Shown here piece after piece: positions 25,276 to 54,863 of a stretch of 64,000 bases of DNA. The position numbers were made by a program, and so were the translations under genes. The notes beneath the pieces are model-generated. The model searched no databases, was not told the DNA's origin, and saw only the letters and a program-made list of their open reading frames with translations. Position 1 is the first letter of the stretch; each line of letters starts with the position of its first letter. Source of the stretch: Ferrovibrio terrae (lineage in GTDB: Bacteria > Pseudomonadota > Alphaproteobacteria > Ferrovibrionales > Ferrovibrionaceae); contig NZ_CP041636.1 of NCBI RefSeq assembly GCF_007197755.1, forward strand, positions 904,001 through 968,000, given 5' to 3'.

Positions 25276-25326
25276 TTGAGAAATAGAACAAATGCGGTAC
25301 ATATTATAGGAATATTATCGAGATGA
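25276..25326 (+). promoter_or_regulatory. AT-rich promoter element with LexA-like core, shared with 54.8 kb
   Basis: The sequence runs TTGAGA, then AATAGAACAAATGCGGTACA, then TATTATAGGAATATTATC. Its core GAAC-AAATGCG-GTAC (25287-25301 approx.) is one base off the alphaproteobacterial LexA box (GAAC-N7-GAAC / GTTC-N7-GTTC). About 33 of 40 positions recur on the minus strand at 54,815-54,858, upstream of a GH108-like gene, with GATATC following in both. It precedes the two unknown genes starting at 25,361. Confidence 0.55.
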
Positions 25327-25360: not shown

Positions 25361-25573
25361 ATGTTCGAGAAGCAGGGCAAGCATATGACGGCGGAGGAAT
25401 TCCGGCGCAATGCCCGTGAGATTTGCCGCGACGTGATGGAAAAGCTGCGCGACGACTGGGAACGGCGCGGCGAATTGCAGAAGCCGCCATCGAAAACCTC
25501 GCGGGACTATCCCGGCCCGGCAAGCGCACAGCGCGCCCAGAGATTGCGCGACAGCGGAAAGCCACTGCCATGA
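25361..25573 (+). CDS. Small hypothetical protein, first gene of a two-gene unit
   Basis: A 70-residue, highly charged protein that I do not recognise. Its first half is a predicted helix (MTAEEFRRNAREICRDVMEK, then LRDDWERRGEL), and the rest is a Pro/Arg-rich tail ending RLRDSGKPLP. A GTG two codons upstream (25,355) has the better-spaced GAGGG and may be the true start. Its stop overlaps the next ATG by 4 bp, so the two products are made together. Codon use is ordinary for the window, but the promoter region is unusually AT-rich and shares an element with 54.8 kb. Confidence 0.6.
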   Translation: MFEKQGKHMTAEEFRRNAREICRDVMEKLRDDWERRGELQKPPSKTSRDYPGPASAQRAQRLRDSGKPLP

Positions 25574-26295
25574 AGTCACTGCTGTTTTGGCGCAGTCGCG
25601 AGGTCTGCATGATGGAGCGCGACTGGTGGGATTTCGGCTTCGGACTGCAGGATGCCTTCCCCGAGGCGCGTTATTACCGCGAACCGGACCCCGGGAATCG
25701 CAAGGACGACAACGTCACCACGCCGGAGCCGCCGGAATTGCCGATGGTCAGCCACCTCCTGGACACGCAGGTCGGCCCCAGCAGCCGGGTCAAGATGGTG
25801 TTCGATCCGGCATGGCAGCCACAGTGCGAGAAAAGCACCCATGTCTTTCCTCGCCACAATTCGGCCGGCTGGCGCTGGGATTTCTCCGACCCTCCCGCAC
25901 CAAGCGTCACGTTCCGGCTGGGCGGCGGTGTCTATGACGAACCGGTGCCGCATCCTTCGACGGGCGACATCACCTTCTACATCGAGAAGAACAAGGAGAA
26001 TCAGGACCTGGCGGGCCGCTTTTTTCGTATCCTGAACAAGTTCGCAACCAACAAGAAGAACCTTGTCCGCGTGCGTGTGCCAAGCATGGAAGTCACTGTG
26101 CCGGTTGGAACCAAGGGGGCCATCACCACCCAGTGGTGCGGCTATCACGCCATCGAATGGGCGCGCCAGGAACCGAACCGCGTGCTGTTTTATGTGCGCG
26201 CCGGCTTCGGCATCCGGCCAACGGCGGAGGTCAAGCCCTTCGTGCCGCCACCGAAACCGAAGGCGAAAACACCGCGTGAGAAGACTAAAGCTTGA
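25570..26295 (+). CDS. Hypothetical protein, second gene of the two-gene unit
   Basis: A 241-residue protein of unknown function with no signal peptide, membrane span or nucleotide-binding motif that I can see. It is rich in Trp, Pro and aromatic residues (MMERDWWDFGFGLQDAFPEA). The middle looks beta-rich (SVTFRLGGGVYDEPVPHP), followed by IEKNKENQDLAGRFFRILNK and a Lys/Pro-rich tail (PPPKPKAKTPREKTKA). ATG 25,570 overlaps the upstream stop. The 3' end overlaps the tail of the convergent hydrolase gene by 11 bp. Its promoter resembles that of the GH108-like gene at 54.8 kb, hinting at co-regulation. Confidence 0.65.
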   Translation: MKSLLFWRSREVCMMERDWWDFGFGLQDAFPEARYYREPDPGNRKDDNVTTPEPPELPMVSHLLDTQVGPSSRVKMVFDPAWQPQCEKSTHVFPRHNSAGWRWDFSDPPAPSVTFRLGGGVYDEPVPHPSTGDITFYIEKNKENQDLAGRFFRILNKFATNKKNLVRVRVPSMEVTVPVGTKGAITTQWCGYHAIEWARQEPNRVLFYVRAGFGIRPTAEVKPFVPPPKPKAKTPREKTKA

Positions 26296-53644: not shown

Positions 53645-54778
53645 TCAGCGCCTCCACGCGCCCGGGCGCGTGCGGCTGATGCGATCGATTTCACCGGGCG
53701 TCCATTCCTTCGCCTTGAGACGCGACTCGACGATGGCAGTCTGCAGCGCATCGCGCAGCTTCGGATCATCGCTGGCCTTTTTCAGCGCTGCGAAGCTCTG
53801 CGGACCCATGCCGCCATCGGCCTTGATCGCCGGATCGATGCCCGAATCGTAGATCGCCTCCTGCACAAATGTCATCCCGCCGCTGCTGCCATGCATGAAC
53901 ATGGCATCGGCAACCGCATGGGCGAGATCTGGATCGAGCTGCTCCAGCGCTTTCGCGCCGCCGACATGGCGGAAACCCTGATCGAGATAGGCGCGATAGA
54001 CCTGCACCTGCTGGTCCGGCGTCAGATCACCCGGCTTCACATCCTTGGGCAGACCCGGCAGCAGGCCTTTGCCCTGCATGTCCTGCAGTGTCGTCTCGGT
54101 GATGCCGCCGACAGCCGTGCCGTTCGGGTCACGCACGCGCCCACCTTCTTCGGCATAGATGCGGCCAATGGCCGTGCCCTGTGACGGCTGACCGGGCAAT
54201 TGCCGCTGGATCGCCGACTGGCTGTCGGTCCAGACATCCTTGTTTTCCGGCTTCAGGAAGAAGTCGCGCTTGTGGCCAGGCACCGGCATGAATTCAGATT
54301 GGGGCATCGGTTTCTGCTGCGGCATCGGCGCAGGAGCCTGCGGCAGCGCATCTGTCTGAACTGAGTTGGCCTGGGCCAGCTGTATCTCGTCCTCCGCGTC
54401 GCGCGGCTGCTGCCAGTAGTCGTCCACCTGCTGTGGCGTCAGCGCCGGGCGGTTTTTCAGATGGCTGCCACTCTGCTGCTGCAACAGATGCAGCGTCTCG
54501 CCCACGCCATTCTGGGCCACGCGGCCCTGCACCATCGGCAGCAGCAGGCCGTCGGCCTCCAGGCCGTTGTCCTTCTGCAGATTGGTGATCGCGCGGGTCA
54601 GCCCGTCGCCCGGCCAGCCGGTCGGAATGCCGGGCGCCGGCAGATCGAGATAGCCGGCATCGGCCAGCAGGGTCTGCGCCTTGATCACGTCGTCGCGGCC
54701 GTTGTCGCCGTTGCGGCCGACCGAGCCGCCGAAGCTGAACAGGTTGTCGAAGAAATTCTCTTTTGAAAGCAATGACAT
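53645..54778 (-). CDS. GH108-like peptidoglycan hydrolase with peptidoglycan-binding N-domain
   Basis: A 377-residue protein. Residues 28-80 look like a PG_binding_1 repeat (VIKAQTLLADAGYLDLPAPG, then GDGLTRAITNLQKDNGLEAD). A Gln/Pro linker (140-165) joins a C-terminal domain with EEGGRVRDPNGTAVGGITET (210-229), close to the GH108 catalytic motif (EGG-x-DP-x-GG-x-T), and the C-terminal GH108 region with AVADAMFMHGSSGGMTFVQE and DGGMGPQSFAALKK. No signal peptide is visible. GH108 enzymes are typical of phages, so it may be a phage remnant or a lysis gene. ATG 54,776-54,778 (MSLLSK) is used. Confidence 0.7.
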   Translation of the reverse strand: MSLLSKENFFDNLFSFGGSVGRNGDNGRDDVIKAQTLLADAGYLDLPAPGIPTGWPGDGLTRAITNLQKDNGLEADGLLLPMVQGRVAQNGVGETLHLLQQQSGSHLKNRPALTPQQVDDYWQQPRDAEDEIQLAQANSVQTDALPQAPAPMPQQKPMPQSEFMPVPGHKRDFFLKPENKDVWTDSQSAIQRQLPGQPSQGTAIGRIYAEEGGRVRDPNGTAVGGITETTLQDMQGKGLLPGLPKDVKPGDLTPDQQVQVYRAYLDQGFRHVGGAKALEQLDPDLAHAVADAMFMHGSSGGMTFVQEAIYDSGIDPAIKADGGMGPQSFAALKKASDDPKLRDALQTAIVESRLKAKEWTPGEIDRISRTRPGAWRR

Positions 54779-54807: not shown

Positions 54808-54863
54808 ATATCGAGTGACAATATTCCTCTATTATGTACCATATATGTTCTATTTTCAAGATC
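54808..54863 (-). promoter_or_regulatory. AT-rich promoter element of the GH108-like gene (copy of 25.3 kb element)
   Basis: On the minus strand: TTGAAAATAGAACATATATG, GTACATAATAGAGGAATATT, then GTC and GATATC. It contains GAAC-ATATATG-GTAC and matches the 25,276-25,326 element at about 33 of 40 aligned bases. It overlies a likely sigma-70 promoter, so a LexA-like or phage-type repressor could act here. Confidence 0.55.

What the first reader, a model, noticed from the sequence alone, without database searches (positions are those of the whole stretch)
25276..25326. A 45-bp promoter element shared by two unlinked accessory loci
The region before the unknown gene pair at 25.4 kb and the minus strand before the GH108-like gene at 54.8 kb share an AATAGAACA..GGTACATA..AGGAATATT..TC element with about 33 of 40 matching bases, followed by GATATC in both. 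The core GAAC-N7-GTAC is one base off the alphaproteobacterial LexA box. This points to co-regulation, perhaps SOS or a phage-type repressor.
Basis: seen in the sequence. Interest (0 to 1): 0.7.

Follow-up and report, generated by a model that had tools for sequence, protein, structure and literature searches.

The report
LexA-like promoter of toxin-like gene family
Two separate loci in this bacterium share the same promoter switch because both belong to one family of cell-wall-binding, toxin-like genes, and the switch most resembles the one that turns genes on after DNA damage.

Summary
Elements A (25283-25316 +) and B (54820-54853 -) match at 31 of 40 bases; the best other 40-mer in the window reaches 22. 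The 4.26 Mb genome (relatives' records are mostly titled Ferrovibrio) has four copies within 3 mismatches, none for the reversed pattern.

The loci are related. B and copy C encode proteins sharing an N-terminal peptidoglycan-binding module; A keeps only a C-terminal remnant of such a protein plus its partner gene. In loci found by protein, 10 of 13 module hits have GAAC-N7-GTAC/GTAT upstream, 70-73 bp before the ATG in 8 of 9 well-anchored genes. The box lies between a TTG-type -35 and a TATAAT-like -10, as an operator should.

LexA is the best candidate: recA carries GAAC-N7-GTAC in 5 of 5 readable promoters of three sister genera, and a module homologue in another genus has GAAC-N7-GAAC. 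Against this, 0 of 8 own-genus recA promoters have the GTAC box, and the genome's 23 core sites, 18 of them placed alike in congeners, lie beside genes that I did not recognise as repair genes. Directional GTTCG decamer arrays precede many. GATATC is coincidence. Binding and induction are untested.

The parts
25276..25281 (+). Putative -35 (TTGAGA) of promoter A, 18 bp before the -10
   Evidence: read; a TTG-type -35 can be read in 12 of 14 aligned promoters (by eye)
25283..25316 (+). Extended element, copy A
25286..25300 (+). LexA-like box GAAC-N7-GTAC, copy A
25300..25305 (+). Putative -10 (CATATT), overlapping the last base of the second half-site
   Evidence: read; inference
25361..25573 (+). 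A1, 70 aa: C-terminal remnant of a C1-type protein (the homologous stretch begins at 25319, before the ATG; 56% identity to C1 residues 403-481)
25570..26295 (+). A2, 241 aa: intact partner (immunity-like) gene; 64% identical over 222 residues to the partner of the C1 orthologue in a Ferrovibrio MAG (L083)
54820..54853 (-). Extended element, copy B
54836..54850 (-). LexA-like box GAAC-N7-GTAC, copy B
54854..54859 (-). Putative -35 (TTGAAA) of promoter B, 17 bp before the -10
   Evidence: read; inference
54831..54836 (-). Putative -10 (CATAAT) of promoter B
   Evidence: read; inference
53645..54778 (-). B, 377 aa: peptidoglycan-binding N-terminal module plus endolysin-like C-terminal part

Best explanation
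The element is the repressible sigma-70 promoter of a small family of peptidoglycan-binding, toxin-like genes. A LexA-type box (GAAC-N7-GTAC) fills the spacer and touches the -10, so a bound repressor would block RNA polymerase; the best candidate repressor is LexA, which would make the genes DNA-damage inducible. The family pairs one N-terminal module with different C-terminal parts: endolysin-like (B), or a putative nuclease followed by a partner gene (C and L017 types). Locus A is a decayed copy that kept the promoter, a C-terminal scrap and the partner gene, as expected if the partner is an immunity gene. Shown: the promoter family, its position, the gene relationships, the box at recA of sister genera. 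Inferred: -35/-10 assignment, LexA as the binder, damage induction, nuclease and immunity functions, release or delivery.
For: Ten of 13 N-terminal-module hits in the 12 loci found by protein search carry the box upstream; at -70 to -73 in 8 of 9 well-anchored genes, -82 in the ninth. 14 aligned promoters: AGAACA in 14, GTAC in 10, GTAT in 3, GTCT in 1, TTG-type -35 in 12 by eye (rows other than A and B were picked with GAAC-N7-GT). recA: GAAC-N7-GTAC in 5 of 13 readable promoters, all 5 outside the own genus. lexA: GAAC-N7-GAAC at 16 of 16 starts read. Sister genera: of 8 loci fetched with GAACA-N6-GAACA (79 core sites counted there), 2 precede SplB-like radical SAM genes, 1 a comM-like gene, 1 lies about 0.7 kb before an imuB-like gene; that these are LexA targets elsewhere is recalled. 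One more, L160, lies before a homologue of the module (44% over 61 residues, E 2e-10). Core motif 23 in own genome, 1 reversed. Partner gene kept beside a truncated first gene at A, L023 and L082. C-terminal model: EcoRI Z 8.4 (rmsd 4.4, 125 aligned), Hjc 6.6, VRR_NUC 5.9.
Against: The second half-site is not the canonical GAAC. 0 of 8 readable own-genus recA promoters have GAAC-N7-GTAC. uvrA has no box in 15 of 17 readable promoters, the own genome included. Core sites of this clade lie beside rpsD, secG, a threonine synthase-like gene, a DNA methyltransferase and others, and at L070 clearly between convergent genes (names by eye, gene picks mechanical); in 19 further congener loci I recognised no repair gene. 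In an 864-kb sample no imuB, comM or SplB gene was found, so own-genome SOS boxes beyond lexA and recA stay unseen. L020 and two L083 hits lack the box. The AGGAATATT block beside the box is not explained by LexA. The nuclease model has mean pLDDT 57.6, and unrelated lumazine synthase scores Z 7.7; the partner model (pLDDT 55.6) matches nothing informative.
Confidence: 0.6

Rival explanations
1. The box is bound by another GAAC-recognising regulator or chromosome-organising protein peculiar to this Ferrovibrio clade, not by LexA; the toxin-like genes are only part of its targets.
For: Core sites are frequent in five genomes (23, 31, 25, 16, 16; reversed controls 1-6) but not in five other congeners (3-8; controls 1-5). 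Many lie at housekeeping-type genes, one clearly between convergent genes. Directional GTTCG decamer arrays: 11 of the 15 listed have a box within 320 bp on the 3' side, 0 of 15 on the 5' side. Box places are shared between species (18 of 23) and spacer bases are more alike than flanks in 55 pairs (233/330 against 862/1870; unrelated site pairs 0.39).
Against: GAAC-N7-GAAC is the published alphaproteobacterial LexA motif (passages of PMC12700426, PMC3323433, PMC2248561) and is at lexA here; recA of sister genera has the GTAC form. No candidate regulator was identified.
Confidence: 0.27
2. The likeness of A and B is only shared descent: the promoter was copied along with the gene family and is an ordinary constitutive sigma-70 promoter with no operator.
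For: All four extended copies belong to loci of the family or of its relics; AGGAATAT follows subtype, 8 of 14 promoters.
Against: The box keeps its distance while the sequence between it and the ATG differs; it also occurs without the family at loci shared between species, with the spacer better conserved than flanks; AGAACA is not a known sigma-70 contact (recalled).
Confidence: 0.1
3. A phage or prophage repressor operator.
For: B has endolysin-type matches (phrog_315, E 6.8e-9; NF040573, E 1.2e-4 but 22 bits against a cut-off of 240).
Against: No relatives of the N-terminal module in viral contigs; element hits there look like chance.
Confidence: 0.03

Closest known systems
Alphaproteobacterial LexA (SOS) box GTTC-N7-GTTC / GAAC-N7-GAAC
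   Same: GAAC first half-site, 7-bp spacer, position across the promoter core; the GTAC form is at recA of three sister genera
   Different: Second half-site GTAC/GTAT/GTCT; conserved AGGAATATT block downstream; many clade sites not at recognised repair genes. A full-text search for GAACN7GTAC and four similar spellings found no paper
Nuclease colicins and S-type pyocins with immunity genes (recalled)
   Same: Toxin-like gene followed by a partner gene that is kept when the first gene is lost; damage-type promoter box; possible nuclease end
   Different: N-terminal peptidoglycan-binding module instead of receptor and translocation domains (recalled for colicins); no toxin or immunity model matched C1/L083/L086, A2 or C2 in the Pfam, PADLOC and NCBIfam scans made (L083 has a weak Cas11a match, E 0.0043, taken as chance); release unknown
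Phage-type GH108 endolysins
   Same: B: weak Glyco_hydro_108 and PG_binding_3, phrog_315, NF040573 matches
   Different: GH108 and PG_binding_3 hits of B below Pfam's gathering scores; N-terminal module shared with paralogues without lysin matches

Membership tests
Canonical alphaproteobacterial LexA box | Direct repeat GAAC-N7-GAAC | tested here: not met
   A and B read GAAC-N7-GTAC; 10 of 14 family promoters GTAC, 3 GTAT, 1 GTCT. Described as LexA-like variant, not filed as a canonical box
LexA regulon (variant box allowed) | Same box at recA or lexA of the organism or close kin | tested here: inconclusive
   GAAC-N7-GTAC at recA in 5 of 5 readable promoters of three sister genera, 0 of 8 in the own genus; lexA canonical
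LexA regulon (variant box allowed) | Box overlaps the promoter core | tested here: met
   Box between TTG-type -35 and TATAAT-like -10 (hexamers assigned by eye, start sites not mapped)
LexA regulon (variant box allowed) | LexA binding and damage induction | not testable with these tools
   needs EMSA/ChIP and RNA-seq
Polymorphic toxin / bacteriocin with immunity | Shared N-terminal module with different C-terminal domains | tested here: met
   B endolysin-like; C and L017 types other
Polymorphic toxin / bacteriocin with immunity | Known toxin domain | tested here: inconclusive
   no family model; low-confidence model resembles PD-(D/E)XK nucleases
Polymorphic toxin / bacteriocin with immunity | Partner gene retained where toxin is lost | tested here: met
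   A, L023, L082; protection itself untested
GH108 lysozyme | Pfam Glyco_hydro_108 above gathering score | tested here: not met
   B: 17.8 bits against 21.2

The most novel reading that the evidence does not exclude
In one Ferrovibrio clade a LexA-like box has spread into a genome-wide set of a few dozen intergenic sites, many preceded on one side by arrays of a 10-bp GTTCG unit, forming an undescribed composite cis-element that ties toxin-like cassettes to housekeeping genes; the array units repeat the GTTC half-site about once per helical turn and may load or titrate the same protein.
Probability: 0.3. Interest if true: 0.75.

Novelty: new variant of a known kind. Interest (0 to 1): 0.5.

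Why it matters
It turns two lines of similar sequence into a testable prediction: a family of cell-wall-binding toxin-like genes in a little-studied alphaproteobacterial genus is held by a variant SOS-type operator, as colicins are held in enteric bacteria (recalled). The clade-wide set of sites beside housekeeping-type genes, with directional decamer arrays, asks whether the SOS regulon was rewired there or whether a second GAAC-binding protein took the site over.

Tried and rejected
GATATC as part of the element: rejected, out of register and not conserved.

Phage operator: no relatives of the N-terminal module in viral contigs; the element's two viral hits lie in AT-rich sequence without other likeness.

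Mobile repeat: rejected as the main account, because sites keep their places between species while flanks diverge. A's own site is an exception: the homologous loci L174 and L217 have a site, but not at the projected place (about 280 bp instead of 37 bp from the rluC-like gene), so I do not claim that it is orthologous.

A first conservation count (spacer 191/246, flanks 710/1394) used relatives that I had picked, leaving out several whose site looked different; one search repeats it with all 55 pairs and is the one quoted.

Own-genome SOS genes as a yardstick: 800 kb in 40 stretches plus the window held no imuB, comM or SplB gene by tblastn. GAAC-N7-GAAC and GAAC-N7-GTAC are not enriched over other spacings in that sample.

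Structures: both AlphaFold models are weak; the partner gene's matches are uninformative.

Full report
OBSERVATION. The two elements are real and at the stated places: 31 of 40 bases identical, next best 40-mer in the window 22. Searching the whole genome (window = C1:904001-968000 of 4,264,634 bases) with the extended pattern at up to 3 mismatches gives four places: A, B, C (898040-898073, 5.9 kb left of the window) and D (248541-248574), none for the reversed pattern. Three of the four lie within 61 kb. Of 18 genomes of the family searched with a slightly looser pattern, 4 have a match, all in the same genus; the one in G008 has 3 mismatches.

WHAT THE LOCI ARE. B (377 aa) and the gene after C (C1, 484 aa) share an N-terminal module (54% identity over C1 residues 1-124; alignment) holding Pfam PG_binding_1 above its cut-off. 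Their C-terminal parts differ: B has weak GH108, PG_binding_3 and endolysin matches; C1 matches no further Pfam family. C1 is followed by C2, 251 aa. The 'unknown gene pair' at A is A1, homologous only to C1 residues 403-481 (56% identity), and A2, 64% identical over 222 residues to the partner of the C1 orthologue in a Ferrovibrio MAG (L083). So A is a deletion relic: promoter, C-terminal scrap, intact partner. Two other loci show the same: L023 in a congener (72-aa remnant plus partner) and L082 in this genome (partner with a short MSLQ-type start). D has the promoter but neither module nor partner was found there; its locus aligns with L023 (1655 bases), so D looks like the last step of the same loss. 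Retention of the partner is what an immunity gene would show; this is inference.

THE PROMOTER FAMILY. Going by protein rather than by DNA, I found the module in this genome and in 6 loci of named MAG contigs, 4 titled Ferrovibrio and 2 Alphaproteobacteria. In the 12 loci of these two calls there are 13 module hits, of which 10 have the box upstream; L020 and two further hits in L083 do not. In C, B, L017 and L083-L088 the box lies at -70 to -73 from the ATG in 8 of 9 and at -82 in one; in L019, which looks frameshifted near its start, it lies about 55 bp before the nearest ATG. Some MAG loci are the same genes as those seen by pattern (L083/L025, L084/L022, L088/L026), so the counts are not fully independent. 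Fourteen promoters aligned: AGAACA in 14; second half GTAC in 10, GTAT in 3, GTCT in 1; by eye, TTG-type -35 in 12 (CTG in D and L019) and a TATAAT-like -10 17-19 bp on, whose first base is the last base of the second half-site. That overlap may explain GTAT and GTCT: they make the -10 start with T. AGGAATAT is in 8, TAGGAT(T/C)AAA in 4; the role of this block is unknown.

IS IT LEXA? The published alphaproteobacterial motif is GTTC-N7-GTTC or GAAC-N7-GAAC (passages seen in PMC12700426, PMC3323433, PMC2248561). This genome has one clear lexA, with GAACCTCATTAGAAC upstream. A lexA relative was found in 16 of 18 family genomes; all 16 starts that I read have GAAC-N7-GAAC. recA is split: outside the genus 5 of 5 readable promoters have GAAC-N7-GTAC (G014, G015, G016, G004, G003; three genera), within the genus 0 of 8, although AGAACATATGGGGTC or AGAACATATACGGGGTT stands before the start in 7 of these 8 (L049 differs), and L050 has GAAC-N7-GAAC further up (L048 and L057 could not be read, L059 is partial and was not scanned). 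uvrA: 15 of 17 readable promoters have no box; G004 has GAACGATTATAGTAC and G014 GAACATCCCGCGAAC (L106 unreadable). In sister genera I fetched 8 loci with GAACA-N6-GAACA, of 79 core sites counted there: two lie before SplB-like radical SAM genes, one before a comM-like gene, one about 0.7 kb before an imuB-like gene, one before mraZ, one (L160) before a homologue of this family's module; at L196 and L200 I recognised nothing. So LexA is the natural candidate, and the homologue in another genus with the canonical box is the most telling single link.

WHAT DOES NOT FIT. The core GAACA-N6-GWACA occurs 23 times in this genome against 1 for the reversed pattern. Besides the family's promoters the sites lie near rpsD, secG, folP-, threonine synthase-, methyltransferase- and TfoX-like genes (names by eye, not from family models), and at L070 between convergent genes; at L061 and L075 the picture is similar but one flanking ORF is doubtful. 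The sites are old: 19 of 23 loci have a homologous congener locus that carries a core site, 18 of them at the projected place in the same orientation (75 congener loci, most but not all of the sites counted in G008, G010, G012 and G013, plus two of G006). These loci were fetched because they carry the motif, so this shows shared position, not the rate of loss. In 55 such pairs the six spacer bases are more alike (233/330) than flanks (862/1870), and than spacers of unrelated sites (0.39). Counts are high in five genomes (own 23, G008 31, G010 25, G012 16, G013 16; reversed 1-6) and low in five other congeners (3-8; reversed 1-5). Thus either the LexA regulon grew in one clade or another protein uses a LexA-like site.

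ARRAYS. Many sites are preceded by arrays of (G/C)TTCGNNNNN. The array pattern has 159 matches and none reversed; 100 rows were listed, forming 15 arrays. Of these 15, 11 have GAACA-N7-WACA within 320 bp on the 3' side and none on the 5' side. The window, and so A and B, has no such array. I did not search papers for these arrays.

FUNCTION OF THE PROTEINS. A model of the C1-type C-terminal region (mean pLDDT 57.6) has its best matches among restriction-type nucleases: EcoRI Z 8.4, Hjc 6.6, PaqCI 6.1, VRR_NUC 5.9, with unrelated lumazine synthase at 7.7; Z below 8 may mean little. This is a lead only. The partner model is too weak to use.

VERDICT. A real, conserved, family-wide promoter with a LexA-like operator; SOS control likely but untested; the wider site set and the arrays are the more unusual part.

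Noticed in passing
own genome, e.g. L107, L066, L067, L069, L072, L139-L141 (L013:5471-5580 -): Arrays of a 10-bp unit (G/C)TTCGNNNNN, about 4-15 copies; 159 pattern matches and 0 reversed; 11 of 15 listed arrays have a GAACA-N7-WACA box within 320 bp 3' and none 5'.
   Followed up: partly
L019 (G000:C1:1441862-1442167 -): A family member whose N-terminal module is read in a different frame from its likely start: apparent frameshift near the 5' end.
   Followed up: no
L020 (G000:C1:895039-895266 -); L024 and L187 in congeners: A divergent PG-binding subfamily: inverted AGAACATAATAGGAATAT before L020, and boxes between such genes and an exporter-like (RhtB-type, by eye) gene.
   Followed up: partly
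L172 (G008:C5): GAACAAATCAAGAACA about 75 bp from the start of a transposase-like gene (IS1595-like by eye), beside decamer arrays.
   Followed up: no
L199 (G003:C13): GAACATAAATAGAACA about 235 bp upstream of mraZ.
   Followed up: no
own-genus recA promoters L044-L047: A conserved GGAATATTCCATAAATATC overlaps and follows GAAC-N7-GAAT upstream of recA, recalling the AGGAATATT block of the element.
   Followed up: no
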